Source: Muribaculaceae bacterium (GTDB taxonomy: Bacteria > Bacteroidota > Bacteroidia > Bacteroidales > Muribaculaceae). Taken from it: 39,554 nt of DNA. The DNA is taken from positions 1-39,554 of the forward strand of contig JAFTDD010000040.1 of assembly GCA_017454355.1 (NCBI GenBank). The letters run 5' to 3'. The position numbers and the translations under genes are program-made. A model generated the notes under the pieces. The model was not told the origin of the DNA. It ran no database searches and saw only the letters and a list, made by a program, of their open reading frames with translations. Each line of letters opens with the position of its first letter. Positions within the stretch are counted from its first letter, which is position 1. Shown piece after piece: positions 16,419 through 39,451 of this stretch.

Positions 16419-16421
16419 GTT

Positions 16422-16453
16422 GTCCTCCCCCAACCCCCTCCTAAAGGAGGGGG
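16422..16453 (+). repeat. Dispersed palindrome CCCCCTCCTAAAGGAGGGGG, copy 1
   Basis: A GTCCTCC lead followed by a near-perfect palindrome. The same roughly 30-base word occurs in the opposite orientation at 27462-27492. It can fold into a strong hairpin after the GH32 gene but has no T-run. Confidence 0.75.
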
Positions 16454-16470
16454 CTACAGGTTTGCGGAGC

Positions 16471-16506
16471 AACTCTTAGAACTCTTAGAACTCTTAGAAC
16501 TCTTAG
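16471..16506 (+). repeat. AACTCTTAG tandem array
   Basis: Four exact 9-base units lie directly before the DUF1573 start codon at 16516. They contain TAG in the reading frame of that gene, so no longer upstream start is possible. Confidence 0.9.
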
Positions 16507-16515
16507 AAACAACAA

Positions 16516-17130
16516 ATGGTTGCCGACACACTGGTTGTAATTGGAATGGCCGTCGCCTCGCTAGGCACGGTGCCTGAACTGGGCGGAGCGCACGAACGCG
16601 TGTTCCGTCTGGTGAACGACGGCACCGAGGCGGTGACGCTCGTGCAAGGCTACACCTCATGCGAGTGTACCAAGATTGACATGCCGCTTGGCGCGACACT
16701 CGCGCCGGGCGACACGGCCACGGTGACACTGCGCTTTGACCCGCGCGGGCGCGGCGGCGAGTTCTCGACCACGGGCACGGTGACCTATAGCGGACAGGGC
16801 GGCAAGCGCAAGCGCGTCAAACTCGAACTGCAAGGCAACGTGGCCCTGAGCGAGCAGACGCTGCTGCGCCGCTTTCCGGTGGATGCCGGCAACGGCTTGC
16901 GGTTGTCCTCCGACCGCTTTGACTTGGGCGTGATGCGCACCGGGCAGAAGGCCGAGCGCACCGTGATGGTCCTCCACCGCGACGAGGGCGACCGCACCGA
17001 GGCGATCACCGTGCGCTACACCGCCACCGGACACGGCCTGCAACACGTGCCGCACACAATCACGGTGACCGACGCCACCGGCAATCGGCACCGACTAACC
17101 ATCACCATTGACGTTCTTGTCAAAACCTAA
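16516..17130 (+). CDS. DUF1573 Ig-like protein without signal peptide
   Basis: A 204-residue protein of the DUF1573 type (ASPM-SPD-2-Hydin-like Ig fold). The first domain is about residues 5-110 and contains the usual SLGTV, FRLVNDGTEAVTLV, the Cys pair in TSCECT, and LAPGDTATVTLRFDPRGRGGEFSTTGTV. A second similar Ig fold covers about 115-204 (FDLGVMRTGQKAERTVMV). The family is common in Bacteroidetes and normally exported, but this copy has no signal peptide: the first Ig strand begins almost at residue 5, and a stop codon within a tandem array blocks any longer form. It may be cytoplasmic or a 5'-damaged gene. Its role in a fructan locus is not known to me. It is followed nine bases later by the second GH32 gene. 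Confidence 0.85.
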   Translation: MVADTLVVIGMAVASLGTVPELGGAHERVFRLVNDGTEAVTLVQGYTSCECTKIDMPLGATLAPGDTATVTLRFDPRGRGGEFSTTGTVTYSGQGGKRKRVKLELQGNVALSEQTLLRRFPVDAGNGLRLSSDRFDLGVMRTGQKAERTVMVLHRDEGDRTEAITVRYTATGHGLQHVPHTITVTDATGNRHRLTITIDVLVKT

Positions 17131-17139
17131 AAAGCAATT

Positions 17140-18801
17140 ATGAAAAAAATTTTGACTTTAGTTACCGCAGCGTTGGTGGCACTGGGTGCCGCGGCACTCA
17201 CGCCGCAGATGCTGAGTGACAACCACGCGATGCTGCGCGTGAGCGTCGACGGCCGCTACCTGCTGCTGCCCGTGCAGGAGAAGGAAGAGATTGCCCACCT
17301 GCGGGTGGTCGTCGACAACAATCTGGTCCAGACGCTCAACGTGCGCCTGGCAGTGGACAAGGTGGACTACTTCGTGCCGCTGGACCTCAAGCGCTACGGC
17401 AGCGACAAAGCCCTGGTGGACATCACCTTCCACGGCGACCGCCGCACCACGGGCGCGGTCAAGGACTTTGCCTGCTGGCGGGAAATGAAGGTGAGCGACA
17501 CGTTCGACGCCACCAACCGCGAGCGCTTCCGCCCGGCCTACCACCACACCCCGGAGTACGGCTGGATGAACGACCCCAACGGCATGTTCTACAAGGACGG
17601 CGTGTGGCACCTCTACTACCAACTCAACCCCTACGGCTCAATGTGGGAAAACATGACCTGGGGCCACAGCACCAGCCGGGACCTGATTCATTGGCAGGCC
17701 GAGCCCATCGCCATCGAGCCGGACGCCATCGGCACCATCTTCTCGGGCTCGTGCGTCACGCGCGGCGACGATGTGGTGGCCTTCTACACCACCGCCGGCC
17801 AGAACCAGACGCAGTCGATGGCCATCTCGCGCGACGGCGGCATGACATTCGACAAATATGACAACAACCCCGTTATCACCGCAAACATTCCTGACTTCCG
17901 TGACCCGAAAGTGTTCTGGAACGCCGACATCAACCGCTGGAACCTCATTCTGGCTGCCGGACAAGAGATGCACATCTACTCCAGCGCCGACCTCATCGAC
18001 TGGCGCTTTGAGAGCGCCTTCGGCAAGGAGTACGGCAACCACGGCGGCGTGTGGGAGTGCCCTGACTTGATGAAGATTGACGGCAAGTGGGTGCTGCTGT
18101 GCAACATCAACCCGGGCGGCCCGTTCGGCGGCTCGGCCACGCAGTACTTTGTGGGCGACTTCGACGGCCACAAGTTCACGTGCGAGTCGATGCCCAAGGT
18201 GACCAAGTGGATGGACTACGGCAAGGACCACTATGCCACGGTGTCGTTCTACAACGCTCCAGCCGGCCGCCACGTGGTGCTCGCGTGGATGAGCAATTGG
18301 CAGTATGCCAACCAGGTGCCCACCAAGCAGTTCCGCAGCGCCAACTCGCTGCCGCGCGACCTGGGCCTGTTCTCCCACGGCGAGGAGACCTACCTCAGCG
18401 TCAAGCCGTCGCCCGAGGTGGACGCCATCCGCGGCGCCAAGGTCAAGAAGCCGACCGAGGCTTGCGAGATTGTTGTCGACATCAAGAGCGCCATGGAACT
18501 CACGCTGGCCAACGCGGCAGGTGAGAAAGTCATACTGAGTTACGACCCGCAGGCCCAAACGCTTTCGCTGGATCGCACTCTCAGCGGACAGACGGCCTTC
18601 AGCGAGGCATTCCCGTGTGTGACCGTCGCGCCCACCCACGGCTCTGTCAAGCAACTGCGCGTCTTTATCGACCGCTGCAGCATCGAGGTCTTTGACGCCG
18701 CCGGCCACGTGACAATGACCAACCTTGTGTTCCCCTCCGCCCCATACGACAACCTCTCCGTCAAGGGCGGCAAAGCCACCATCTATAAACTTAGCATATA
18801 G
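17140..18801 (+). CDS. GH32 exo-fructanase (beta-fructosidase)
   Basis: A 553-residue exported GH32 enzyme expected to release fructose from the non-reducing end of fructans or sucrose. Signal peptide 1-19 (GAAA/LTP). Residues about 20-125 form an N-terminal beta-sandwich extension seen in Bacteroides fructanases. The propeller has all three canonical blocks: WMNDPNG with nucleophile Asp145, FRDP with Asp255, and WECPDL with acid/base Glu306. The C-terminal sandwich ends with the usual CSIEVFD motif. There is no lipobox, so it is probably periplasmic, supplying the fructose that the HTCS senses. Its start lies nine bases after the DUF1573 stop. The last codons and the stop fall inside a TAGCATG array. 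Confidence 0.95.
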   Translation: MKKILTLVTAALVALGAAALTPQMLSDNHAMLRVSVDGRYLLLPVQEKEEIAHLRVVVDNNLVQTLNVRLAVDKVDYFVPLDLKRYGSDKALVDITFHGDRRTTGAVKDFACWREMKVSDTFDATNRERFRPAYHHTPEYGWMNDPNGMFYKDGVWHLYYQLNPYGSMWENMTWGHSTSRDLIHWQAEPIAIEPDAIGTIFSGSCVTRGDDVVAFYTTAGQNQTQSMAISRDGGMTFDKYDNNPVITANIPDFRDPKVFWNADINRWNLILAAGQEMHIYSSADLIDWRFESAFGKEYGNHGGVWECPDLMKIDGKWVLLCNINPGGPFGGSATQYFVGDFDGHKFTCESMPKVTKWMDYGKDHYATVSFYNAPAGRHVVLAWMSNWQYANQVPTKQFRSANSLPRDLGLFSHGEETYLSVKPSPEVDAIRGAKVKKPTEACEIVVDIKSAMELTLANAAGEKVILSYDPQAQTLSLDRTLSGQTAFSEAFPCVTVAPTHGSVKQLRVFIDRCSIEVFDAAGHVTMTNLVFPSAPYDNLSVKGGKATIYKLSI

Positions 18802-18847
18802 CATGTAGCATGTAGCGTGTTGCATGTAGCGTGTAGCATGTAGCATA
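18792..18847 (+). repeat. TAGCATG tandem array at the GH32 stop codon
   Basis: Eight 7-base units with minor variants (TAGCATA, TAGCGTG, TTGCATG). As in the sensor gene, the first unit is coding (it supplies Ser-Ile) and the TAG stop at 18799-18801 opens the second unit. The array fills most of the spacer to the transporter gene. Confidence 0.9.
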
Positions 18848-18867
18848 CTAAAAAAGAACGATTAAAT

Positions 18868-20034
18868 ATGAACAACAAAACCAATTCAATCGCAATCGTG
18901 TCGGTGATGCTGTGCTTCTTCTGCATGGGCTTCGTCGACCTCGTGGGCATCGCCTCCAACTATGTGCAAAAAGACCTTGGACTGAGCCACACCGTGGCCA
19001 ACTTCCTGCCGTCGCTCGTCTTCTTCTGGTTCCTCATCTTCAGCGTGCCCACGGGAATGTTGATGAATAAGATCGGCCGCAAGAACACGGTGCTCATCTC
19101 GCTGGTGGTGACGGTGTTGTCGCTGATGATTCCGCTGTTTGGCAACAGTTTCCCGGTGATGCTGTGCTCGTTCTCGCTGCTCGGCATCGGCAACGCGCTG
19201 ATGCAGACGTCGCTCAACCCGCTGGTGTCGACGGTGATGGGTGGTGACAAGAACCTTGCCTCGACGCTCACCTTTGGCCAGTTTATCAAGGCTATCGCCT
19301 CGTTCCTCGCGCCTTATTTGGCCATGTGGGGCGCCACGGCCGCCATTCCCAGTTTTGGCCTCGACTGGCGCGTACTGTTTGCCATCTACTTTGTGGTGGG
19401 CCTGTGCTCGACGCTGCTGCTCGGCGTGACCCACATCGATGAGGAACCCATCACGGGTCGTCCCTCAACGTTTGTGGAGTGCTTCAAACTGTTAGGCACG
19501 CCGGTGGTGCTGCTGTCCTTCCTGGGCATCATGTGCCACGTGGGCATCGACGTGGGCACCAACACCACCGCTCCCAAGATTCTCATGGAGCGATTGGGCT
19601 GGACGCTCGACCAGGCGGCTTTTGCCACCTCGCTCTACTTCATCTTCCGCACCATCGGCTGCTTGACCGGCTCGTTCTTCCTGCGCGTACTCAAGACCCG
19701 CACCTTCTTCATCATCAGCGTCATCATGATGGCGCTCTCGATGTGCGGCCTGTTTATCGGCGACGAGCAGTGGGAACTCTACGCCGCCATCGCCCTGGTG
19801 GGCTACGGCAACTCCAACATCTTCTCGATCTGCTTCGCCCAGGCACTCAACTCGATGCCCACCAAGCAGAACGAAGTGTCCGGCCTGATGATTATGGGCC
19901 TCTTTGGCGGCACCATCTTCCCGCTGCTCATGGGCTTCGCCAGCGATGCCGTCGGCCAAGTCGGCGCCGTGGCCGTCATGGCAGTCGGCGTGATCTACCT
20001 CTTCACTTACATCAAGCAACTAACCACCAACTAA
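18868..20034 (+). CDS. MFS sugar transporter, FHS (FucP/GlcP) family
   Basis: A 388-residue inner-membrane permease with 12 predicted helices, of the fucose/glucose-galactose:proton symporter type. Visible features are the N-terminal FFCMGFVDLVG helix, the loop-2 GMLMNKIGRKNTV signature, and NALMQTSLNPLVSTV in helix 4, the region that carries the NPL signature in this family. Position between GH32 and fructokinase genes points to fructose import, as for the equivalent gene (BT1758) of the B. thetaiotaomicron locus. Length is slightly short for the family (usually about 400-440). A hairpin repeat element occupies the gap to the next gene. Confidence 0.92.
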   Translation: MNNKTNSIAIVSVMLCFFCMGFVDLVGIASNYVQKDLGLSHTVANFLPSLVFFWFLIFSVPTGMLMNKIGRKNTVLISLVVTVLSLMIPLFGNSFPVMLCSFSLLGIGNALMQTSLNPLVSTVMGGDKNLASTLTFGQFIKAIASFLAPYLAMWGATAAIPSFGLDWRVLFAIYFVVGLCSTLLLGVTHIDEEPITGRPSTFVECFKLLGTPVVLLSFLGIMCHVGIDVGTNTTAPKILMERLGWTLDQAAFATSLYFIFRTIGCLTGSFFLRVLKTRTFFIISVIMMALSMCGLFIGDEQWELYAAIALVGYGNSNIFSICFAQALNSMPTKQNEVSGLMIMGLFGGTIFPLLMGFASDAVGQVGAVAVMAVGVIYLFTYIKQLTTN

Positions 20035-29641: not shown

Positions 29642-30274
29642 ATGCATATCGCTATCGCAGGCAACATAGGCTCGGGAAAATCGACGCTCACCAGACTGCT
29701 CGCCCGCCACTACGGGTGGACGCCACGCTACGAGTCGGTCGACAACAACCCCTATCTCGAGGACTACTACAACGACATCCACCGATGGTCGTTCAACCTT
29801 GAGGTGTACTTCCTCAAGGAGCGCTTCCGCGACCTGCTGGCCATCGCCCAGGCGCCGGGCACGATAATTCAGGACCGCTCCATCTTTGAGGGCGTGTATG
29901 TGTTCATGGCCAATAACAAAGCGATGGGCCACCTGTCGGACCGCGACTTCAACACCTATATGGAACTGTTTGAGCAGATGCTGTCCGTTGTAAAACTACC
30001 GGACCTGATGATTTACCTGCGGGCCTCGGTGGCCCACCTGGTGGCAAACATCCAGAAGCGCGGCCGAGAATACGAGCAGACCATGCAACTGGCCTACCTC
30101 GAGAACCTTAATCGCCGCTATGAGGACTTTATCACAAACCAATATAAAGGCCGCGTGATGATTGTCGAGAAAGACAACCTCGACTTTGAGAACAACGCCG
30201 AGCACTTCAGCCAAGTGACACGCCGCATCGACGGCCTGCTCTACGGCCTCTTCCCACTAACGACTACCGACTAA
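29642..30274 (+). CDS. Deoxynucleoside kinase, first of a tandem pair
   Basis: A 210-residue cytoplasmic kinase of the deoxynucleoside kinase (dNK/dGK) family, which phosphorylates deoxynucleosides in the salvage pathway. Seen are the P-loop AIAGNIGSGKSTLT, the substrate residues in RYESVDNNPYLEDYY, the QDRSIFEGVYVF motif (with the DRS signature) and the arginine-rich lid NIQKRGREYEQTM. Its own promoter lies about 60 bases upstream. The second copy lies 72 bases downstream. By analogy with Lactobacillus, where adjacent genes encode a dAK/dGK heterodimer, the two products may pair, but specificity cannot be read here. Confidence 0.93.
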   Translation: MHIAIAGNIGSGKSTLTRLLARHYGWTPRYESVDNNPYLEDYYNDIHRWSFNLEVYFLKERFRDLLAIAQAPGTIIQDRSIFEGVYVFMANNKAMGHLSDRDFNTYMELFEQMLSVVKLPDLMIYLRASVAHLVANIQKRGREYEQTMQLAYLENLNRRYEDFITNQYKGRVMIVEKDNLDFENNAEHFSQVTRRIDGLLYGLFPLTTTD

Positions 30275-30346: not shown

Positions 30347-30967
30347 ATGCATATCGCTATCGCAGGTAACATCGGCAGCGGCAAGACTACGCTCACTTGC
30401 ATGCTCGCCAAGCACTACGGCTGGGAGCCGCGGCTCGAGTCCGTCAGTGACAACCCCTATCTGGAGGACTTCTACGCCGACATGGAACGCTGGGCATTCA
30501 ACCTCCAAATCTACTTCCTCAACCGCCGCTTCAAGGACGTGGTGGAGATTTCGCGCACCGACAAAGTCATCGTGCAGGACCGCACCATCTTTGAGGACGC
30601 GCGCATTTTCGCACCCAACCTCCATGACCAGGGCAAGATGAGCGACCGCGACTTCGACAACTACTGCGACCTATTCGACCTGATGATGTCGCTGGTCAAA
30701 CTGCCCGACCTGATGATTTACATCCGCTCGAGCGTGTCGACACTCGTCGCCCAAATCCAAAAGCGCGGCCGAGAGTACGAGCAGTCAATGCGCCTCGACT
30801 ACCTCCAGGGCCTGGAGCGGCGCTACGAGCAGTGGATTGAGACCTACCCCGGCAAACTCATGATTATCGACGGTGACAACTGCAAGTTCGGCGACAACCT
30901 CGAGCACTTCAGTCAAGTCACCAAGCGCATCGACGGCCTCCTCTACGGCCTCTTCCCCATCGTGTGA
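30347..30967 (+). CDS. Deoxynucleoside kinase, second of a tandem pair
   Basis: A 206-residue paralogue of the preceding kinase. It keeps the P-loop (AIAGNIGSGKTTLT), the ESVSDNPYLEDFY substrate segment, QDRTIFEDARIF and the QIQKRGREYEQSM lid. The first 20 bases of the two genes are identical and similarity continues throughout, so they arose by tandem duplication. Differences near the substrate pocket (DNNPYLEDYY against DNPYLEDFY, DRSIFEG against DRTIFED) suggest different base preference. It is probably co-transcribed with the first copy. A long hairpin follows the stop codon and marks the end of the GC-rich part of the window. Confidence 0.93.
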   Translation: MHIAIAGNIGSGKTTLTCMLAKHYGWEPRLESVSDNPYLEDFYADMERWAFNLQIYFLNRRFKDVVEISRTDKVIVQDRTIFEDARIFAPNLHDQGKMSDRDFDNYCDLFDLMMSLVKLPDLMIYIRSSVSTLVAQIQKRGREYEQSMRLDYLQGLERRYEQWIETYPGKLMIIDGDNCKFGDNLEHFSQVTKRIDGLLYGLFPIV

Positions 30968-30980
30968 CCACTTGCTTATA

Positions 30981-31058
30981 CGGGAGAAAATCTGCATGAT
31001 TTTCTCCCGTGAATTCCCGTGAATTATCGTGAATATTTTTTTCACGGCAATTCACGGG
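30981..31058 (+). terminator. Hairpins after the kinase pair
   Basis: CGGGAGAAAATC pairs with GATTTTCTCCCG (30981-31009, 12-base stem). It is followed by a nested hairpin with outer arms CCCGTGAATT/AATTCACGGG (31016-31058) and inner arms CGTGAA/TTCACG. The first has no T-run; the inner loop of the second is T-rich. CCCGTGAATT-type words recur near 31505-31535. Confidence 0.6.
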
Positions 31059-31170
31059 ATGCTTTTTAGACAATCCTGCCTATTCTCGAAACGAATTAGG
31101 AGGTGCGTCTAACTTCCCTCAGCCCCTCGGCCCCTCGGAGAATTCTCGTGAGAAAAAATGAAAAAATTAT

Positions 31171-31207: not shown

Positions 31208-31496
31208 GTATCGCCAAGTGTCGTGGCCAGACCACGATGCTCTTGAGATACCAAACATATAGAAAAGCGTTTCTTGCTCTATCCTTTGCTCAGTAAAATC
31301 GGCAAAATTTTAACTACAAAAAGGAGAGGCTCTCGAATGAAACGCCATTGCGAGCCAATACATTCACCCCTCAAGCGACAGGCGGCGATATTTCGGCAGT
31401 GCGTGGATTGACTGTTTATCTTCACTTCAAGGACATTCGCCAATGTCACCCTGAGCAGGTAGACGGTAAAGTGTCGCACGCTTTTTTATTTCCTCG
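31208..31496 (+). ncRNA. Candidate structured non-coding RNA 1 (about 290 nt)
   Basis: It begins with three nested helices: GGTATC/GATACC (31207-31212 with 31247-31252), CAAG/CTTG, and TCGTGG/CCACGA. Further stems are GGCTC/GAGCC around 31330-31360, GACATT/AATGTC with a four-base loop near 31430-31445, and GCGACA pairing with TGTCGC near the end. It finishes in CGCACGCTTTTTT. No reading frame fills it. It lacks the hallmarks I would expect of tmRNA, RNase P RNA or SRP RNA, so its class is unknown. Confidence 0.5.
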
Positions 31497-31660
31497 AAAA
31501 TATATCTCCCGTGAATTCCCGTAAATTTACGTGAATTATTTTATCTCGCAAATAATGATTTTGTATTGAAAGACGAAGTCTTGTACAAACTCAAGAAAAT
31601 TCACGCGTTGTTATTTACGTAATCCATGTGATGTTTTTTTGTAAAAAATCTCGGAAAAAT

Positions 31661-31691
31661 TTTGCGTTTCCAATCAAAACCATTACCTTTG
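31661..31691 (+). promoter_or_regulatory. Promoter TTTG-N19-TACCTTTG for candidate RNA 2
   Basis: TTTG at 31661-31664 and TACCTTTG at 31684-31691 are a full consensus match. The nearest downstream protein start is at 32140, about 440 bases from the predicted transcript start. Confidence 0.75.
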
Positions 31692-31697
31692 CGGCTA

Positions 31698-32070
31698 GAT
31701 AAGTAAAGATTCGGTTTAACCGATATCGAAATTATCTAAAAAATCCCACGCCGACGGGCGGCCGGCCTCAATGCAATGGCTGAAATAGAGGGTGGGTGAC
31801 ATATAATTACTGGCGTTTTCTATAACGCTTTGGTTTTGACTTCTTGAGAATCTAGCAAGTTCCAAAGACTGTTTGTCAAAAACAAAGCAACGAGAACGTC
31901 CCTAAGGTGATATATAGGATTCGTCCATCATGATTTAGTTATGATGTGATGATATATAAATCATCGGCGTGGGGCTTTCAGCGTTGCTCGTTCCGACAAA
32001 CATGGCAATGCTAGAGCCTTCAAGAGGTGGAACCGAGCAACAAGAATCGGCTCCACGTTTGGTTTTTATA
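31698..32070 (+). ncRNA. Candidate structured non-coding RNA 2 or long leader (about 370 nt)
   Basis: Successive inverted repeats suggest a folded RNA: TAGATAA/TTATCTA enclosing TCGGTT/AACCGA at the 5' end, GCGTT/AACGC, TTTTGAC/GTCAAAA, GATGAT/ATCATC. A long 3' hairpin follows with CGTGGGGC (31968-31975) pairing with GCTCCACG (32050-32057), and GTTGCTCG pairing with CGAGCAAC. TTTGGTTTTTATA follows, like a terminator. It could be a free RNA or a leader controlling the operon starting at 32140. I see no match to tmRNA or RNase P motifs. Confidence 0.5.
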
Positions 32071-32139
32071 TGTCTAACTGATTTACATTGAATCAAGTGC
32101 CTTATGGAGCTGGAAGCATCGCAATAAGTTTCAACAAAC

Positions 32140-32745
32140 ATGAAAAGCTTGAAATTTGTAATTTTGCTATTCTTCACCTCGTTGATCGTTTCGGGGTGTG
32201 GAAGTTCAAAAGGAGTTCAGTCTAGACGAACTAAGCTTGAAGAGAATGAGTGCAGAAAGTTAGCTATGGAAAAGCCTAGCACTCGCGCATGGGGTCGTGC
32301 CGTACATCCTGATATGTCTCATGCAATTTCTTATGCCGAAGCAGATGCTCGCAACAAATTTGCAGCCGCTATTGAAACTGCTGTGAAATTGGGTAGAACA
32401 GTTTATGATGAAGGGTATCAGAAAGCTACAGCCGATAATCATGAGGGGGCTGTCGTACGAGATGATCAGGGCAAAAGAGAATTGGAAAATGCCCAAGTTG
32501 CAGGTGCTGTTGTCAGAAATACTGTTGTAATAAAAGATGAATTGTATGAGCTGAGAAATGGACAAATTGAGGCGTATGTAACTTTGGAGTACACTGGCGA
32601 TATTGGAGATATGACTTCAGCCATCGTGAAGAACATTAAGCAAAGAGTCTCTGATGAAGAGCGCCAACGAATCGACTACGATGAAAAGAAGTTCCGAGAA
32701 TATATTGAAGAGGAACTGAAAAAGATGAGAGCCGCAGACAAGTAG
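32140..32745 (+). CDS. LPP20-like lipoprotein
   Basis: A 201-residue lipoprotein with signal peptide ending in VSGC (Cys20). The mature part resembles the LPP20 lipoprotein family: HAISYAEADARNKFAAAIETAVKLG, the helix that typically opens the domain, then a strand region VVIKDELYELRNGQIEAYVTLEY. A charged C-terminal helix (SDEERQRIDYDEKKFREYIEEELKKMRA) ends the protein. The function of LPP20-like domains is poorly known; they occur in outer-membrane and secretion-related lipoproteins. First gene of an AT-rich run; the next gene starts seven bases after the stop. Codon use is AT-rich, unlike the genes before 31 kb. Confidence 0.8.
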   Translation: MKSLKFVILLFFTSLIVSGCGSSKGVQSRRTKLEENECRKLAMEKPSTRAWGRAVHPDMSHAISYAEADARNKFAAAIETAVKLGRTVYDEGYQKATADNHEGAVVRDDQGKRELENAQVAGAVVRNTVVIKDELYELRNGQIEAYVTLEYTGDIGDMTSAIVKNIKQRVSDEERQRIDYDEKKFREYIEEELKKMRAADK

Positions 32746-32752
32746 CTTCAAG

Positions 32753-34639
32753 ATGAGAACCTTGATTAAGAACATAACATTGATACTCCTATGCTCTATA
32801 CCCCTAGAGCATGCCATATATTCTCAAAACGTACAAGATATAAAGAATAGTGGCGCATACGTTTGGGGTGAGGGCATGGGAGTCTCATTGGAAGAGGCTG
32901 AAGAAATGGCCATGTCACGTATGTGCAAGAGCATATCTGTTGATGTCTTTCATCTAACATCAAGAGAAGATAATAACCGTCAATTAACGGATAGAGATGT
33001 TCAATTAACATTGACCACCGCAAGATTGCAAAATGTTCAGACCCGTACATTGGCAGAGGAACCGGAATTTAGAGTGTTGTGTTTTATGTCGCGCGATGAA
33101 GTCGCACGTATTTATGATGCGCGTGCGAAGCGCGTGATTGATTTGGTACAATCCGGAAAGAGAGCAGAGGAACGACTCCAAATTGATGATGCATTGAGAT
33201 GTTATTATTGGGCATTATTGTTATCACGCACCAATCCGAACCCTATTCAAGTCTCTTTTCTTGATAAAAAAGGCGATGCAACAATTTTGCTATATGAGAA
33301 AATCAATTCAGTAATTAAGCAGATAAAAGCTGAAGTTACAGATGGAGTTTGCACAAATGAAACAGTTAAGGCTACAATACACTTCACTTATAATGGCAAA
33401 GATATTTCGACACTACAATTTCGATATAATGATGGCCAGCACATGGTAGGACCAGAGTTTGTCCGAGATGGTGTCGGCGAAGTTGATCTAGTGAGTGTGC
33501 CTAGCGATAAAATGCTCCATATTAGTTATGAAACTCAATTTCGTAATGATATAGATCCTCTTGATAGTGAGTTGGCTGGCTTATACACTGTATTGCGTAA
33601 TCTTCCATCTTTCAATTCATTAACGCAAGTGCCATTTAAACAGAAAGGCAAAGAAATTAAAGCGGTAAAGCCATCTAAGAAAGAGATTGATATCGAAAAT
33701 GACAGTTCTTTCATTATGGCACAAACAGCAATCCAAAAGAAACCGATTGCTCTTAGAGAGGTGCAAGATGTCAAGCCTCTATTAGAAAAGATTCACACAA
33801 TTGAGATGGCGATTGAGTCAAGAAACGCTAAAATTGCTAGCGATTGTTTCACTGTGGACGGCTATAAACTATTTCACACCTTGCTTAATGAAACTGGGCG
33901 TGTTACATTGGTTGGCAAGTCGGACTACGAGTTTGTTGAAGCAGATGGCTATCTTGTTGGTCGCGCCACTCAAATAAAGATTAAATTTAAAAACGGCAAA
34001 TCATTTATTGAGAATATTGTATATCGTTTTGACGCTCAATCAGGCAAAATCTCATCTATCGCATTCAGATTGACCAAAACAGCAGAAAACGATATAATGA
34101 ATGCGGCTGCACAATGGCCAGAAGTATCACGATGGGCAATATTGAGTTTTATGGAAGATTACCAAACTGCATTTGCCCTCAAACGTCTAGATTATATTAG
34201 CAGTATATTTTCCGAGGATGCCATTATTATAACTGGAACAGTGATTAAGAAAGCGAACACCTCAAATGACTTTATATTTAACGACAATCGATTAATACAA
34301 CTTAATCCAGAGACGTCACAAAGAGTTAAATATAGCCAACATACCAAGTCGGAGTATATACAAAAATTAGGAAGAATTTTTGATCGTCGTGAATATGTTC
34401 ATTTAACATTTGAGGATAACATAACTCAAATTATCGATTTACCAATCGTGTCCAGGGGCGCAGCTTTCGGCATTGAAATTAAGCAAAGGTATACAACTCC
34501 AACGTATAGTGATGAGGGTTATTTAACGCTAGCCTTTGACACAAGAGGAGAGCACCCACTAATACATGTTCGCTTTTGGCAACCAAATAAGAACGAAATG
34601 ATGAGCTTGCAACAATTTATATCATTGTTTGCCGAGTAA
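32753..34639 (+). CDS. Exported protein with LPP20-like and NTF2-like regions
   Basis: A 628-residue protein with a signal peptide (about 1-24). Residues about 30-125 echo the LPP20-like pattern (YVWGEGMGVSLEEAEEMAMSRM, then FRVLCFMSRDEVARIYDARAKRV). A helical stretch follows (ALRCYYWALLLSRTNP), then an Ig-like region near 195-290. About 365-460 and 465-620 each look like an NTF2/SnoaL-type cone fold, with the pattern of a leading helix followed by strands (FMEDYQTAFALKRLDYISSIFSEDAIIITG). These assignments are by eye only. No active site is evident. It is tightly coupled to the upstream lipoprotein gene and followed by the PEGA/barrel gene 33 bases on, suggesting a common complex in the envelope. 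Confidence 0.7.
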   Translation: MRTLIKNITLILLCSIPLEHAIYSQNVQDIKNSGAYVWGEGMGVSLEEAEEMAMSRMCKSISVDVFHLTSREDNNRQLTDRDVQLTLTTARLQNVQTRTLAEEPEFRVLCFMSRDEVARIYDARAKRVIDLVQSGKRAEERLQIDDALRCYYWALLLSRTNPNPIQVSFLDKKGDATILLYEKINSVIKQIKAEVTDGVCTNETVKATIHFTYNGKDISTLQFRYNDGQHMVGPEFVRDGVGEVDLVSVPSDKMLHISYETQFRNDIDPLDSELAGLYTVLRNLPSFNSLTQVPFKQKGKEIKAVKPSKKEIDIENDSSFIMAQTAIQKKPIALREVQDVKPLLEKIHTIEMAIESRNAKIASDCFTVDGYKLFHTLLNETGRVTLVGKSDYEFVEADGYLVGRATQIKIKFKNGKSFIENIVYRFDAQSGKISSIAFRLTKTAENDIMNAAAQWPEVSRWAILSFMEDYQTAFALKRLDYISSIFSEDAIIITGTVIKKANTSNDFIFNDNRLIQLNPETSQRVKYSQHTKSEYIQKLGRIFDRREYVHLTFEDNITQIIDLPIVSRGAAFGIEIKQRYTTPTYSDEGYLTLAFDTRGEHPLIHVRFWQPNKNEMMSLQQFISLFAE

Positions 34640-34672
34640 ACTTTAAAATAACTTAATAACTTATAAATAAAG

Positions 34673-36406
34673 ATGAACAGATATTTATTAATTATTCTAC
34701 TCATGATTGTTGTTGGCAACATCTGCTATGCTCAAGAGCAAAGACAGATGGAGTTCGACAACGATTTTAGAGAGACAAAAGCTACATTGGGCAATCTAAC
34801 ATCAATATTTGCTGATGATAGCTGGAAAACAGATGCTAATGGTAGAGCGGCTGCTATCATCCGTATCCGTGTAACTCACATGTCAGTTGCTGAGATGAGA
34901 AAATTGTCTCCAAAAGGGTCTCCGCAATTAGCAATGGGGAACCGGAACTTTGATGAAGAGAATCATAATTGGTATATTGCAGTAAGTACCTCAAAGGGCA
35001 ATTGGCTTGAAATGGCACATCCGGCCTATGGTGTAAGTACGAGACTTTATTTTAGTGATGAGCTCAATCCGAACTCAATCTATGACGTGACTCTCATTAA
35101 TAATGAGACAACAACAATTTCCGTTCGTTCTATTCCCCAAGGGGCAACTGTGTTTATTGATGGAGACCGCAAGGGGGTTACGCCATGTGAAGTCCCCGGA
35201 CAACGATTCGGAAAGCACTCTTTGAAATTGTTGCTCGACGGCGCAAGTATTATCAAAGATATCGAAGTTGAGCAGGGACATGCTACTTTTGATGACTTTG
35301 ATTTCAGAAAACGCGCAATAGTACGCCTCATTAGTGATCCATCAGGAGCAAAAATCTACATGGATGATGTGGAAATAGGGAAAGCTCCAATTAACGAATA
35401 TAGCGTTGTCCTTGGTGCTCACACATTTAAGGCCGTCTTAAATGCCGAGCAGATTGACGAAATAAGCTTGAATGTGACAGAAAACACAACCTTGATTGAC
35501 TTGCATCCAGTAAAAAAAGGAACAGTACAAATCAGTACTCGATATAGCGGTAGACCAGTAGAAGCAGATCTTTACATAGATGATAATGAACATTTCTCAG
35601 GGCAAGCAGTTTATAATATAACCAAACCCTATGGTGAGTATAATTTTCGAGTATCCTATGGAGCTCGAGTTAAAGAAAAACGCATCAAGGTTAATAAACC
35701 TGAAATAAATCACATTTTTAAGCTCTCTGCTAAGAACGACTTTGTTTGGCCGTGGCAAAGAGAGCATGATAGGGCTGTTGCCGGTCTCTCGCTTGGATGT
35801 GTAGCAAAAGAGTTAGTTGCAGTTGGCGAATCCGACAAATTAAGTGGAGAACCGGCTTACTGGCGTGAGGGAAAATGGCTAAAAGGATTTCAAGCCGGTT
35901 TCTATTTTATGCCATCACTTTCTTGGGGAGGAGGCTTGTATTTCGGTCTATTCTATGAGTTATATATCGCAAAAAGCGATATTTATGCCGGAACAAGCAT
36001 TGATAGCGACTTTAATCACTTCACTGAGCATTCATTAAATATTCCATTTCATTTGTGCTACACTTTGCCCTTCTCAAGAAAATTCAGCATTTCTCTGCAT
36101 AGTGGTGTTGGAATGGACGTTGGCATTCATGCGAGTTATGCTGGTGGTGCTCTTGGCATCGGTAATGCGGATGACGCTGAGCCAATAACTGACTATTATG
36201 GTAAGAGTAATAGTGGGCCTGGACGATTGAACTTTACTATTGATTTCGGTCTTCAACTTAATATGGGACCTGTCGGACTGAACGTTTTTTATTCAAAAGG
36301 AATAAAGAATCATGGTAATATTGTTGGATGGGAAGAAGATGTTAAAACAAAAATTAATAAGTTCGGATTCTCGTTGTCATATGTGATTCAACGTTCCAAA
36401 CTCTAA
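34673..36406 (+). CDS. PEGA-repeat protein with C-terminal outer-membrane beta-barrel
   Basis: A 577-residue exported protein. Signal peptide 1-20 (CYA/QEQ). A strand-rich N-terminal domain covers about 22-145. Three PEGA-like repeats follow: about 148-215 (SIPQGATVFIDGDRKGVTPC), about 218-280 (SDPSGAKIYMDDVEIGKAP) and a divergent one about 283-355. From about 370 to the end, alternating amphipathic strands rich in Gly and aromatics (GFQAGFYFMPSLSWGGGLYFG, FSISLHSGVGMDVGIH, LQLNMGPVGLNVFYSKGI, FGFSLSYVI) indicate an 8- to 12-strand outer-membrane barrel. PEGA domains are common surface or periplasmic binding modules. This protein probably anchors the cluster's products at the outer membrane. 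The next gene begins five bases after its stop. Confidence 0.82.
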   Translation: MNRYLLIILLMIVVGNICYAQEQRQMEFDNDFRETKATLGNLTSIFADDSWKTDANGRAAAIIRIRVTHMSVAEMRKLSPKGSPQLAMGNRNFDEENHNWYIAVSTSKGNWLEMAHPAYGVSTRLYFSDELNPNSIYDVTLINNETTTISVRSIPQGATVFIDGDRKGVTPCEVPGQRFGKHSLKLLLDGASIIKDIEVEQGHATFDDFDFRKRAIVRLISDPSGAKIYMDDVEIGKAPINEYSVVLGAHTFKAVLNAEQIDEISLNVTENTTLIDLHPVKKGTVQISTRYSGRPVEADLYIDDNEHFSGQAVYNITKPYGEYNFRVSYGARVKEKRIKVNKPEINHIFKLSAKNDFVWPWQREHDRAVAGLSLGCVAKELVAVGESDKLSGEPAYWREGKWLKGFQAGFYFMPSLSWGGGLYFGLFYELYIAKSDIYAGTSIDSDFNHFTEHSLNIPFHLCYTLPFSRKFSISLHSGVGMDVGIHASYAGGALGIGNADDAEPITDYYGKSNSGPGRLNFTIDFGLQLNMGPVGLNVFYSKGIKNHGNIVGWEEDVKTKINKFGFSLSYVIQRSKL

Positions 36407-36411
36407 AAACG

Positions 36412-37908
36412 ATGTTGCGCTTTTATCTCGTAATACTATCTTGTATTTTGTCGTTGTCTGGATTTCCTCAATCCTCATTTGAGGAAATCCGGCAGCGCCA
36501 TCATGAGGCATTTAATCGGCAACGAGAAAGAATAGAAAGCGAATTCAATAGGCGGTATAAGCAGATTAATGAGGAATATGCTCGTATGTTAGAAAAGAGT
36601 TGGGGGCATTTCAATTCAGTCTCCCCAACAGTAACGCCACAAGATAATCCTCAACCTGTCAATCCGATTGAATATAAAGAGGGAGATCATCAAACAAATC
36701 CCAAGCCAATACCTTATGATGAAGTAATAGAACCTCCGAAACCTCAACCACAGCCGGTACCTGTTGTTCCTATCGAAAATAGAAATGATCCGCAACCTGT
36801 TTATGTTGCTTTCTCATTCTTTGGCACAAAAGCGAAAGTAAGGTTCAATGATAAATGTCGTATTAAACTTAATAAACTAGAAGAAAGCACTATCGCATCT
36901 GCTTGGAACCAAATGTGTGAAGATGATCACACTAATTTGGTATTGGATTGTATCGAGATTAGAAACACAAGAAAACTCAGTGATTGGTGCTACCTAGGAA
37001 TGTTGAAGCAATTATCAGCAACAATATATGGCAAAGACACCAACGAGGCTGTATTACTTACTTCATTCGTACTCTGTCAAACTGGTTATATGATAAGGTT
37101 GTCGTTAAATGACTCAAAAAGCAAATTATTCTTATTATTGGCTTCAGAACACTTTATTCCAGACTATAATAACGAATGTTTTAATATAGGAGGAGAGATG
37201 TTCTATTCATTTGATGGAGCACCAGAGTCTCTTTTTGCTTGTGATTTCGGTTTCATAGGAGAAAAAAAAATATCATTATGCATCAATAATGAGCAACTTC
37301 TTGATGTACAGCCAACGCAATCCATACATAGGCAGTCGCAGCGTTACCCTGAGATGAATATGAATATATCTTCAAATAAGAACTTGATTGATTTTTATAG
37401 TACATATCCATCATCAATAGTTGAAGTCAATTTTATGACTCGGTGGGCCATGTATGCCAATACACCGATGTCTGACTATATGCGCAAACAGTTGTATCCG
37501 AAATTGAAGTCAGCCATAGATGGGCTAGATGAGTTAACTGCCGCAAACAAACTTCTTAATTTTGTGCAAACAGGCTTTGCCTATGGTTTCGATGATGAAG
37601 TATGGGGTTGCGACAGAGCCTTCTTCGCAGAAGAAACATTGTATTACCCTTTTAGTGATTGTGAAGATCATTCTATACTCTTTACGCGACTCGTAAGAGA
37701 CTTATTGGGATTGCGTTGTGTGTTAATATATTATCCAGGTCATCTTGCATCTGCGGTTGAATTCAAACAATCAAATGTAAATGGAGATTATGTTCAGTAC
37801 GATGGCAAAAAATTCATTTTAGCTGATGCCACTTATATTGGTGCTCCTATTGGTTATACTATGCCCGGGATGGACAATCAAACTGCCAAACTAATATTAT
37901 TAAACTAA
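36412..37908 (+). CDS. Exported transglutaminase-like cysteine protein
   Basis: A 498-residue protein. A hydrophobic signal-like segment (1-18) leads into a charged coiled-coil-like stretch (about 20-65, EEIRQRHHEAFNRQRERIESEF). A Pro-rich linker follows (about 75-130). The middle part is unassigned. The C-terminal part (about 385-490) is transglutaminase-like: FSDCEDHSILFTRLVRDL with Cys417, YYPGHLASAVEF with His444, and FILADATY with Asp472, in the expected Cys-His-Asp order and spacing. Such domains act as cysteine proteases, amidases or transglutaminases. The substrate may be a peptide or protein of the envelope, possibly a cluster partner. The signal peptide lacks a sharp cleavage site. 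It follows the barrel gene by five bases. Confidence 0.82.
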   Translation: MLRFYLVILSCILSLSGFPQSSFEEIRQRHHEAFNRQRERIESEFNRRYKQINEEYARMLEKSWGHFNSVSPTVTPQDNPQPVNPIEYKEGDHQTNPKPIPYDEVIEPPKPQPQPVPVVPIENRNDPQPVYVAFSFFGTKAKVRFNDKCRIKLNKLEESTIASAWNQMCEDDHTNLVLDCIEIRNTRKLSDWCYLGMLKQLSATIYGKDTNEAVLLTSFVLCQTGYMIRLSLNDSKSKLFLLLASEHFIPDYNNECFNIGGEMFYSFDGAPESLFACDFGFIGEKKISLCINNEQLLDVQPTQSIHRQSQRYPEMNMNISSNKNLIDFYSTYPSSIVEVNFMTRWAMYANTPMSDYMRKQLYPKLKSAIDGLDELTAANKLLNFVQTGFAYGFDDEVWGCDRAFFAEETLYYPFSDCEDHSILFTRLVRDLLGLRCVLIYYPGHLASAVEFKQSNVNGDYVQYDGKKFILADATYIGAPIGYTMPGMDNQTAKLILLN

Positions 37909-37935
37909 CTATAAATTGTTTTAATCTGCATTAAT

Positions 37936-38727
37936 ATGAAAGTCAAGATTTATGCATTTATGATAGCCTGTTTTGCGGCACTCGCCCCATTTACGGCTAT
38001 CTGTAAGGACTACAAGGTGAATGGAGTATCATTCACAATGGTGACAGTGCAAGGCGGTACGTTCACGATGGGAGCAACCGCCGAGCAAGGAGACGACGTT
38101 AATGACTATGAGTTGCCAACACATAAGGTGACACTTAGCAGTTTTGAGATAGGTAAAACAGAAGTCACACAAGCCCTATGGAAGGCCGTGATGGGCGAGG
38201 TGGATTGTTTCTACGAGGGAGATAATCTTCCTATTTATGAACTGAGTTGGGAGGAGTGCCAAGAGTTCATCACTAAACTTAATTCTTTAACAGGCGAGAA
38301 ATTTCGGCTGCCTACAGAGGCGGAATGGGAGTTTGCCGCACGTGGGGGCAACAAGAGTAAAGGGTATAAGTATGCGGGTAGTAATGATATAGACAAGGTC
38401 GCGTGGTACTCTTATAATAGCGAACTTGATATTCACCCTGTTGCCACAAAGGCACCCAATGAATTGGGATTGTTTGATATGAGCGGTAACGTTTGGGAGT
38501 GGTGTAATGATTGGTTTGAAGAGGATTATTACACTCCTGCACCACAGACTAACCCTCAAGGGCCAGATGAAGGCTTTAACGATTGTCGTGTCATGCGTGG
38601 TGGTGATTGCGATTATCATAGTAACCCCGATTTTGATGCGTGGTTGTGCCGTGTATCAAATCGTGAATATCATAGACCTGATGACTATAGAGCGGGCGGT
38701 TATCAAGGATTGCGATTGGCAAAATAA
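37936..38727 (+). CDS. Exported SUMF1/FGE-fold protein, probably non-catalytic
   Basis: A 263-residue protein with a signal peptide (about 1-22) and one SUMF1 (formylglycine-generating enzyme-like) domain. Seen are FTMVTVQGGTFTMGATAEQGD, FEIGKTEVTQALWKAVMG, the WEECQEFITKLN helix, FRLPTEAEWEFAARGG, NELGLFDMSGNVWEWCNDWF and the C-terminal VMRGGDCD to GYQGLRLAK. These are the structural markers of the fold. The paired cysteines needed for formylglycine formation are not seen at the expected C-terminal position, where the sequence reads LCRVSNREYH. It is more likely a binding or scaffolding domain than a sulfatase activator, and no sulfatase gene is nearby. Its start lies 27 bases after the preceding stop. 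Confidence 0.85.
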   Translation: MKVKIYAFMIACFAALAPFTAICKDYKVNGVSFTMVTVQGGTFTMGATAEQGDDVNDYELPTHKVTLSSFEIGKTEVTQALWKAVMGEVDCFYEGDNLPIYELSWEECQEFITKLNSLTGEKFRLPTEAEWEFAARGGNKSKGYKYAGSNDIDKVAWYSYNSELDIHPVATKAPNELGLFDMSGNVWEWCNDWFEEDYYTPAPQTNPQGPDEGFNDCRVMRGGDCDYHSNPDFDAWLCRVSNREYHRPDDYRAGGYQGLRLAK

Positions 38728-38911
38728 CTTAGGTTGTTGAATCCTGTGCCAAGCAAAGTTGACTATTATAAGGTATTCAGTAATGCTCATCTTTGTTTGG
38801 CATACGGTTCGCTTTTCTAAAGTTTGTGATTTTAGCATTTTTCATTTTGTTGATTGATAATCTATTGTATCCTAAAAACTCAACTTATTTATAATATCAA
38901 TAATATCAATT

Positions 38912-39451
38912 ATGACGCGATTATCTTTTATACTATTATTTATCATCTCATTGCTTGGATTAACATGCAATGCCTCTGACATAGAGCAAAGAGCCCAAGC
39001 TGGTGATGCTTCGGCTCAATATTTATTGGCATGCAATTACATTTTAAGTCAGCCTTCAGACTATGCGGCGGCTCTGAATTGGCTCCGTCAGTCTTCAAAG
39101 CTGTCCTATGAGCCTGCTACAGCTCTGTTAAATAAATTAACATCTAACGGTAAAGATCGTTGGGGAAATTTTGATTTGTATTCTTTCTTTGTCTATCATG
39201 ACATAGACGAAGATAAACTAGAACAGGCAACCATATATGCATCAAGAGGGCATTCTATCGCCTCTCTGCTTGTTGCCCGTTATTATATTTACATGCAACC
39301 GGACTATACTTCAGCTGTTTCTTACCTCAAGAAAGCCTTAAGTGACTATAAGACAATACCAGAAAAGGACGATTCCATTGATTTTGATGGATATGTAAAT
39401 GAAATGTCTCCGATCACTAGTGTCCACGAAAAAACGTTAACAATTCTCTGA
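38912..39451 (+). CDS. Exported Sel1-like repeat protein
   Basis: A 179-residue protein with a signal peptide (about 1-22, TCNA/SDI). Helical pairs of Sel1/TPR type follow: IEQRAQAGDASAQYLLACNYILSQPSDYAAALNWLRQSSK (about 24-64), then a less regular pair, and ATIYASRGHSIASLLVARYYIYMQPDYTSAVSYLKKAL (about 110-147). Such repeats usually mediate protein-protein contact. The protein is short for the class and ends without a clear domain boundary, so it may be a natural short form or truncated. It is separated from the SUMF1 gene by 184 bases without an obvious promoter but shares the AT-rich composition and export signals of the cluster. Confidence 0.75.
   Translation: MTRLSFILLFIISLLGLTCNASDIEQRAQAGDASAQYLLACNYILSQPSDYAAALNWLRQSSKLSYEPATALLNKLTSNGKDRWGNFDLYSFFVYHDIDEDKLEQATIYASRGHSIASLLVARYYIYMQPDYTSAVSYLKKALSDYKTIPEKDDSIDFDGYVNEMSPITSVHEKTLTIL

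What the first reader, a model, noticed from the sequence alone, without database searches (positions are those of the whole stretch)
32140..39451. AT-rich run of six exported proteins that may form one envelope system
LPP20-like lipoprotein, LPP20/NTF2-like protein, PEGA-barrel protein, transglutaminase-like protein, SUMF1-fold protein and Sel1-like protein lie on one strand with gaps of 5-33 bases for the first five. All have export signals. The combination gives an outer-membrane anchor, a lipoprotein, a cysteine enzyme and several binding modules, which suggests a surface assembly or protein-processing machine. I do not know a described system with this make-up. Composition differs sharply from the preceding 31 kb.
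Basis: partly seen in the sequence, partly recalled or inferred. Interest (0 to 1): 0.75.

Follow-up and report, generated by a model that had tools for sequence, protein, structure and literature searches.

The report
Shuffled protease operon with RNA switch
Four of the six exported proteins belong to a gene cluster that gut bacteria keep together while swapping its middle parts; it ends in a predicted protein-cutting enzyme and starts with an RNA leader that also sits in front of restriction, kinase and surface-protein genes.

Summary
LPP, P2, PEGA and TGL (32140-37908) are a conserved operon of Bacteroidota, seen in other families and, with altered order, in another class. SUMF1 is an occasional neighbour; Sel1 has no support. 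It is one form of a modular family: an exported transglutaminase-fold protein (TGL: invariant C-H-D triad, D-C-E-D motif, closest solved fold LapG), usually with an LPP20-type gene (54 of 78 loci), and exchanged middle modules (NTF2/PEGA, DUF4384-caspase, CHASE2, BACON, LpoB). Best reading: a LapG-like periplasmic cysteine protease on a lipoprotein platform; activity and substrate are untested. 5' of the operon (31794-32067) lies a ~270-nt structured RNA with strong covariation in two competing folds, one an intrinsic terminator: an attenuator architecture. It matches no Rfam family, occurs in 326 of 397 genomes sampled from the family and precedes 17 of 35 TGL operons, but also restriction, BREX, FHA/kinase, BspA, fimbrillin and RiPP-like operons, so it marks accessory operons and does not prove a defence role. 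Part of it may be among uncurated 2021 predictions whose sequences I could not read.

The parts
31684..31692 (+). promoter-like -7 box TAnnTTTGC (Bacteroidota consensus, recalled), about 100 nt 5' of the RNA element
   Evidence: TACCTTTGC here; box present in 66 of 89 leader copies (one of 90 dropped for a short flank) against 6 of 89 on the reverse strand and 1.8 expected by mononucleotide shuffling
31794..32067 (+). structured leader RNA (attenuator-like): 5' hairpin 31812-31829, long-range helices joining 5' and 3' halves, variable hairpin between
   Evidence: 131 double-changed cells against 38.5 shuffled, 0/500; long-range helix complementary in 55 copies of other genera, 0/2000 shuffles; no Rfam match
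31968..32067 (+). terminator conformer of the leader's 3' domain: stem 31968-32057, T-rich tail 32058-32067; shares strands with the long-range helices
   Evidence: (91 rows, 149 double-changed cells against 26.8, 0/500; alignment fitted to the model)
32098..32118 (+). small hairpin before the LPP start; its GGAGCC-type loop can pair with GGCTCC of the terminator
   Evidence: helix 7: five pairs, 95% of cells paired, no pair changed on both sides
32140..32745 (+). LPP: LPP20-like lipoprotein, 201 aa, lipobox LIVSGC
   Evidence: no Pfam match itself
32753..34639 (+). P2: exported; LPP20-type N-terminus, helical/beta middle, two NTF2-like domains (about 341-450 and 457-610, read from the model)
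   Evidence: PDB 4kzs LPP20, E 8e-4; Cds6_C NTF2 on homologues, 18 and 27.4 bits, cut-off 27
34673..36406 (+). PEGA: exported, two PEGA domains plus a beta-barrel-like C-terminus (barrel by eye, not modelled)
   Evidence: 65.5 bits; only gene with a PEGA match in this genome at the threshold
36412..37908 (+). TGL: exported transglutaminase-fold protein; C417, H444, D472 invariant; D416-C417-E418-D419
   Evidence: (pLDDT 89.2)
37936..38727 (+). SUMF1/FGE-fold exported protein; possible optional module
   Evidence: not enriched in TGL directons (p 0.58)
38912..39451 (+). Sel1-like exported protein; probably not part
   Evidence: 184-nt gap, below Pfam cut-off, its profile hits none of the other loci

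Best explanation
A conserved envelope operon (LPP-P2-PEGA-TGL) transcribed through a conditional leader RNA. LPP (lipid-anchored) and the LPP20-type N-terminus of P2 would form an outer-membrane periplasmic platform; PEGA (barrel plus PEGA domains) would tie it to the outer membrane and cell wall; the tandem NTF2 domains of P2 would bind a ligand or partner; TGL, an exported LapG-like cysteine enzyme, would cut a surface or periplasmic partner, and the exchanged middle modules would set what is sensed or processed. The leader folds either into a long-range structure or into an intrinsic terminator, so a protein or other signal could gate the operon. Shown here by sequence: conserved gene set, module exchange, catalytic triad, fold, RNA covariation, leader position. 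Inferred: localisation, protease activity, substrate, platform assembly, terminator switching.
Against: No Foldseek hit passes 1e-3, and no BTLCP/peptidase Pfam family matches; only Transglut_core weakly, best 1e-3, in 17 of 35 members. No substrate is known. Most TGL loci lack the P2+PEGA pair (28 of 35 in the family set; 63 of 78 named), so the core of four is one variant. 24 of 78 directons show no LPP-type gene (six have one elsewhere in the locus). The leader is shared with many unrelated operons, so it says little about function. The long-range fold is 7.5-24 kcal/mol better than the separately folded halves in 16 of 16 copies computed, so termination would need kinetics or a factor.
Confidence: 0.5

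Rival explanations
1. TGL is a crosslinking or amidase-type transglutaminase that joins or trims cell-wall or surface polymers, not a protease; the operon builds a covalent surface structure.
Against: LapG ranks first in both structure comparisons and the D-C-E-D motif resembles its calcium site.
Confidence: 0.2
2. It is a conflict or defence system: a periplasmic arm that senses invasion and acts through cysteine enzymes (TGL, caspase).
For: The same operon family carries caspase and CHASE2 modules and, in one distant locus, a CHASE2-cyclase that also hits Pycsar cyclase profiles. The leader precedes R-M, BREX, SNF2-helicase or FHA/kinase/vWA/PP2C genes in 17 of 20 fetched copies of this genus (two judged by likeness). 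Conflict systems with PEGA, Sel1, caspase and transglutaminase-like parts are described (PMC7159879, PMC8195603, passages).
Against: No PADLOC match for the six window proteins beyond hits of 16.4 and 10.9 bits. In 60 copies from other genera the leader often precedes surface-type genes: LRR_5/BspA in 19 of 85 scanned proteins, while each PADLOC family shown matches 3 of 85.
Confidence: 0.18
3. An outer-membrane ring or export assembly of the FlgP/CsgG/T9SS kind, with TGL only structural.
For: LPP20-type and LpoB-type proteins occur in the family; FlgP builds concentric rings in the C. jejuni basal disk (PMC11756786, passages); window SUMF1 best matches GldK (86 bits).
Against: GldK cut-off is 350 bits; I recognised no secretion ATPase, usher or pore in the loci (not searched for); TGL triad is invariant.
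Confidence: 0.08
4. Unrelated accessory genes gathered in a variable, AT-rich spot.
For: The window block is 19 points lower in GC than its flank; distribution is patchy, 45 of 119 genomes of the family.
Against: Same gene set and order in other families, and the same genes in another class; in 35 loci the GC difference is only -2.1 points on average.
Confidence: 0.04

Closest known systems
LapG / BTLCP periplasmic cysteine proteases (Lap system)
   Same: Exported, transglutaminase fold, C-H-D triad, D-C-E motif at the catalytic Cys
   Different: No Pfam BTLCP match; about 300 further N-terminal residues with a long helix; encoded with LPP20/NTF2/PEGA genes; no adhesin or c-di-GMP receptor recognised beside it (not searched for)
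LPP20 lipoproteins (PDB 4kzs; PF02169; FlgP)
   Same: P2 profile matches solved LPP20 (E 8e-4); some relatives pass the Pfam cut-off
   Different: Window LPP itself has no Pfam match; no flagellar genes seen
vWA-MoxR ternary and GTPase-centric conflict systems (Kaur et al. 2020, PMC7159879, passages)
   Same: Share PEGA, Sel1, NTF2, caspase and transglutaminase-like parts
   Different: No MoxR, vWA or STAND gene in the window operon; all its parts look exported
Transcription attenuators, riboswitches and processive antitermination leaders (general kind; LoaP/EAR recalled)
   Same: 5' leader, terminator, competing conserved fold, many operons under one RNA family
   Different: Matches no Rfam family; found before functionally unrelated accessory operons
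Candidate RNAs HMP2_1881, HMP2_1032, HMP2_4205 (Fremin and Bhatt 2021, PMC8040213, passages)
   Same: 106-132 nt, Bacteroidetes; two palindromic and terminator-like, one near radical SAM genes and transcribed in 13 of 13 places
   Different: Their sequences are in figures and supplements that I could not read; no 5' half or switch is described in the passages I saw

Membership tests
LapG / BTLCP | Cys-His-Asp triad | tested here: met
   C417, H444, D472 invariant in 35 of 35; geometry not measured
LapG / BTLCP | calcium-site acidic residues flanking the catalytic Cys | tested here: met
   D416 and D419 invariant, E418 in 34 of 35, D in one; motif as in DvhG D316/E318. Calcium binding not testable
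LapG / BTLCP | fold | tested here: met
LapG / BTLCP | profile membership (Pfam) | tested here: not met
   No peptidase/BTLCP family among those listed at E 0.1 for 35 members; 17 weak Transglut_core. Not filed as a member
LapG / BTLCP | LapD-type receptor and T1SS adhesin substrate | not tested
   None recognised in neighbourhoods; no search was made
LPP20 lipoproteins (PF02169) | Pfam profile | tested here: inconclusive
   Window LPP none; P2 profile hits 4kzs; relatives L092 46.6 and L178 32.3 bits pass, L182 18.7 does not
SUMF1 / FGE | Pfam FGE-sulfatase fold | tested here: met
   151 bits against 23.3
SUMF1 / FGE | formylglycine-generating cysteines | not tested
   not examined
T9SS GldK/PorK | NCBIfam equivalog cut-off | tested here: not met
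   86 bits against 350
Known anti-phage systems (PADLOC 2.0) | profile matches of the window proteins | tested here: not met
   Only 16.4- and 10.9-bit hits
Rfam families | covariance model match of the leader | tested here: not met
   None at gathering; the E-value search gave three microRNA-type matches at 31002-31062, outside the element
Intrinsic-terminator attenuator | two exclusive conserved folds, one a terminator, 5' of coding genes | tested here: met
   by sequence only
Intrinsic-terminator attenuator | condition-dependent termination | not testable with these tools
   needs RNA data

The most novel reading that the evidence does not exclude
The leader is a new class of gut-Bacteroidales RNA switch: a ~270-nt bistable terminator/antiterminator element, often several copies per genome, that gates a regulon of otherwise unrelated accessory operons (restriction and BREX, FHA-kinase, surface LRR and fimbriae, RiPPs, and the LPP20-protease operons) in answer to one common signal or factor. 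The window operon would be one output of that regulon.
Probability: 0.5. Interest if true: 0.88.

Novelty: new variant of a known kind. Interest (0 to 1): 0.74.

Why it matters
If right, gut Bacteroidota carry a widespread, shuffled LapG-like protease platform in the envelope, a kind of surface control not described in the papers found here. Separately, one structured leader RNA in front of immune, surface and peptide-natural-product operons would suggest that these accessory genes are switched together, which is directly testable with RNA ends, reporters and named strains that carry the operon (Bacteroides muris NM69_E16B, Parabacteroides acidifaciens 426-9).

Tried and rejected

A result that needed care: the consensus fold of 56 family-wide copies is the terminator state with the 5' half folded on itself, not the long-range fold found in the 21 genus copies. 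So I tested the long-range helix by itself: the seven bases after TTGAC and the seven before GTGG pair at 6.78 of 7 in 55 copies of other genera against 4.21 when shuffled between copies, 0 of 2000, and 1.9-3.1 when slid. The copies are related, some share the same seven bases, so this is not a probability.

Literature: searches (listings) showed no paper on this operon or this leader; the listings were capped. Passages only were read in PMC13090378, PMC4241560, PMC8040213, PMC7159879, PMC8195603 and PMC11756786; in PMC11109978 a word search for Bacteroid, Muribac, Prevotella and restriction found nothing. Supplements could not be read.

Choices that bias counts: the 20 genus copies are high-scoring long matches, with G899:C119, G899:C30, G896:C160 and G935:C148 not fetched. 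The 60 copies from other genera were picked by hand from high-ranking rows; two known TGL loci and many other rows were passed over; only 9 candidates per genome were scored there; L306 and L308 carry near-identical genes and both count. Five of 90 downstream ORFs were left out of A6. The 78 named loci are the best 80 of 581 or more, and several are the same contigs as G-handle loci (for example L328, L329, L334, L341, L346, L358, L359, L365, L366, L377), so the two sets are not independent. My HMMs were built and iterated on the family loci and are broad (the PEGA profile also takes barrels without PEGA). ORFs come from a simple longest-ORF caller; some starts are too early. A7 is fitted to its model's structure, and one of its 91 rows is an antisense match (L293). 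Searches were early ticket checks.
Full report
WHAT IS THERE. The six + strand ORFs exist as described, with gaps of 7, 33, 5, 27 and 184 nt, signal-like N-termini and a lipobox in the first (by eye). The block is 39% GC against 58.5% for the first 31 kb. The window is one whole contig of a 102-contig assembly, and the last ORF ends about 100 nt from its end.

THE PROTEINS. Pfam places only PEGA and SUMF1 above cut-off. P2 has an LPP20-type N-terminus (profile hit to solved LPP20 4kzs, E 8e-4) and two C-terminal NTF2-like domains: homologues hit Cds6_C weakly (18 and 27.4 bits, cut-off 27) and the model (pLDDT 77.7) finds NTF2-like structures, VirB8-like and Bd1075 chains. TGL models well (pLDDT 89.2, pTM 0.86). 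Its C-terminal 200 residues match LapG best in both structure comparisons, though no Foldseek hit passes E 0.001. C417, H444 and D472 are invariant in 35 homologues, as are D416 and D419 around the Cys. In the LapG-type enzyme DvhG the Cys and the acidic calcium residues beside it are needed for activity (PMC13090378, passages). Pfam sees only a faint Transglut_core in 17 of 35 members, so I call it LapG-like by fold, not a LapG.

THE OPERON IS CONSERVED AND MODULAR. In 119 genomes of the family TGL occurs in 45 (22 of 30 genera) and P2 or its C-terminal part in 29. Of 35 family TGL loci, LPP-P2-PEGA-TGL is found in the window, L062, L063 and L064, and LPP-like-P2-PEGA-TGL in L073, L085 and L090; 28 lack the P2+PEGA pair. 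The set recurs in other families (L168, L195) and, with TGL first, in another class (L176). Elsewhere TGL sits with other sets: LPP-like, DUF4384, caspase; LPP, an unplaced protein (c7), BACON/CarboxypepD_reg; LpoB-like, DUF6175, LPP20; CHASE2 and a FecR-like gene (the last by eye). In loci of other classes LPP20-type genes and TGL sit with CHASE2 (L175, L182; L178 by eye), in L182 a CHASE2-cyclase and an SH3/M48 gene. Many TGLs of the order lie in frames of about 880 aa; the one scanned has a sub-threshold SBBP hit in its C-terminal part.

STATISTICS. In 78 named loci (Prevotella, Bacteroides, Parabacteroides, Alistipes, Odoribacter and others) the TGL directon holds LPP 14, LPP-like 44, P2 24, PEGA 26, DUF4384 29, caspase 31 and CHASE2 12 among 373 ORFs, against 0, 7, 5, 8, 3, 12 and 0 among 580 outside; SUMF1 is 6 against 7, p 0.58. 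An LPP-type gene is in 54 of 78 directons, P2 with PEGA in 15, all with an LPP-type gene in 14. TGL is constant by choice, being the query. In 393 genomes of the order 30 of 32 genomes with full-length P2 also have TGL, which 89 of 393 have (relatedness not controlled). SUMF1 follows TGL directly in 3 of 78 (gaps 1, 1 and 23 nt), and is next to or two genes from a P2-type NTF2 gene in 6 of 15 such loci fetched (L110, L122, L125, L126, L127, L129), in L126 as a PEGA-SUMF1 fusion. So it is a possible optional module.

THE LEADER. The noncoding stretch 31794-32067 has diverged copies at other loci of the same genome and matches in 25 of 61 genomes of the genus, its own included. Aligning 21 copies gives a consensus of 56 pairs, 96.3% of cells paired and 131 double-changed cells against 38.5 in shuffles (0/500), far above slid controls; the count of further pair types is less striking, 60 against 54.6. 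Here the 5' half pairs with the 3' half over long range. The 3' half can also fold on itself into CGTGGGGC...GGCTCCACG followed by a T-run, with covariation in 91 rows (149 against 26.8, 0/500; alignment fitted to the model). The two folds share strands. In 56 copies across the family the consensus fold is this terminator state with the 5' half folded on itself (28 of 51 pairs with a double change) and the 3' end reads CACGCTTTTTT. The long-range helix is nevertheless kept there: seven variable bases on each side pair at 6.78 of 7 in 55 copies of other genera against 4.21 when shuffled between copies (0 of 2000). A TAnnTTTGC box, the Bacteroidota -7 element as I recall it, lies 5' in 66 of 89 copies against 6 on the other strand. 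The long-range fold is better by 7.5-24 kcal/mol than the separately folded halves in 16 of 16 copies computed. No Rfam family matches.

WHERE THE LEADER SITS. The model of its 3' domain (R1) hits 326 of 397 genomes sampled from the family, 28 of 30 genera. It stands 5' of the first gene in 17 of 35 family TGL loci. Of 17 hits in the 78 named loci, ten lie 11-117 nt 5' of the directon start (L334, L339, L353, L354, L357, L358, L363, L367, L377, L382); the other seven lie elsewhere, some perhaps because my gap rule split an operon. This supports one transcript starting at LPP. In 20 copies of the genus it precedes R-M, BREX or SNF2-helicase genes in 12 (L226 and L231 by likeness), FHA/kinase/vWA/PP2C genes in 5 (the vWA hit of L221 is below cut-off), and other genes, a transposase-like gene or a contig end in 3. 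In 60 copies from other genera, 57 have a same-strand ORF starting within 1100 nt and 41 of these start 33-121 nt downstream; 85 scanned proteins give LRR_5/BspA 19, Big_2 8, radical SAM 3, PLD/SNF2 helicase 3 (two near-identical), Eco57I 2, N6_Mtase 2, Fimbrillin_C 2. It is a leader of accessory operons, defence among them.

MECHANISM. Most likely: a lipoprotein platform with exchangeable sensing or processing modules and a LapG-like cysteine enzyme, expressed behind a conditional terminator. Not shown: localisation, cleavage, substrate, switching.

NOVELTY. I found no paper on the operon family or the leader (searches; listings of an open-access library). Fremin and Bhatt 2021 (passages) list Bacteroidetes candidate RNAs of 106-132 nt, two palindromic and terminator-like and one near radical SAM genes and transcribed; the 3' domain here could be one of them.

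Noticed in passing
window 31000-31060 and 31493-31590: Short ATTCACGGGA-type repeats with dozens of dispersed matches in the genome (67 matches listed for the whole 1140-base query).
   Followed up: no
window 29642-30274 and 30347-30967: Two tandem, similar deoxynucleoside-kinase-like genes (by eye).
   Followed up: no
window 14043-20034: Two GH32-like (fructan) enzymes with an MFS sugar transporter, by eye; upstream a SusC/SusD-like pair and a hybrid two-component regulator.
   Followed up: no
L110 (G000:C60): FHA, zinc-ribbon, Ser/Thr kinase, NTF2, TPR and a triple-SUMF1 gene in one run; a second P2-related locus in the same genome.
   Followed up: partly
L125 1168-9232: Tubulin_2-GYF protein, zinc-ribbon-like (below cut-off), NTF2-like and SUMF1 genes together.
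   Followed up: no
L119: NTF2-like, Sel1-caspase, CHASE2 and FtsW/RodA genes in one run.
   Followed up: no
L290, L292, L311: The leader precedes a small Cys-rich precursor-like gene and radical SAM genes (RiPP-like, by eye; and radical SAM).
   Followed up: partly
L160-L166: TGL in frames of about 860-930 aa; extra C-terminal region with one sub-threshold SBBP hit.
   Followed up: partly
L111 5653-5756: R1 leader hit (28 bits) 5' of another SUMF1 gene (702 aa) of the window's own genome.
   Followed up: no
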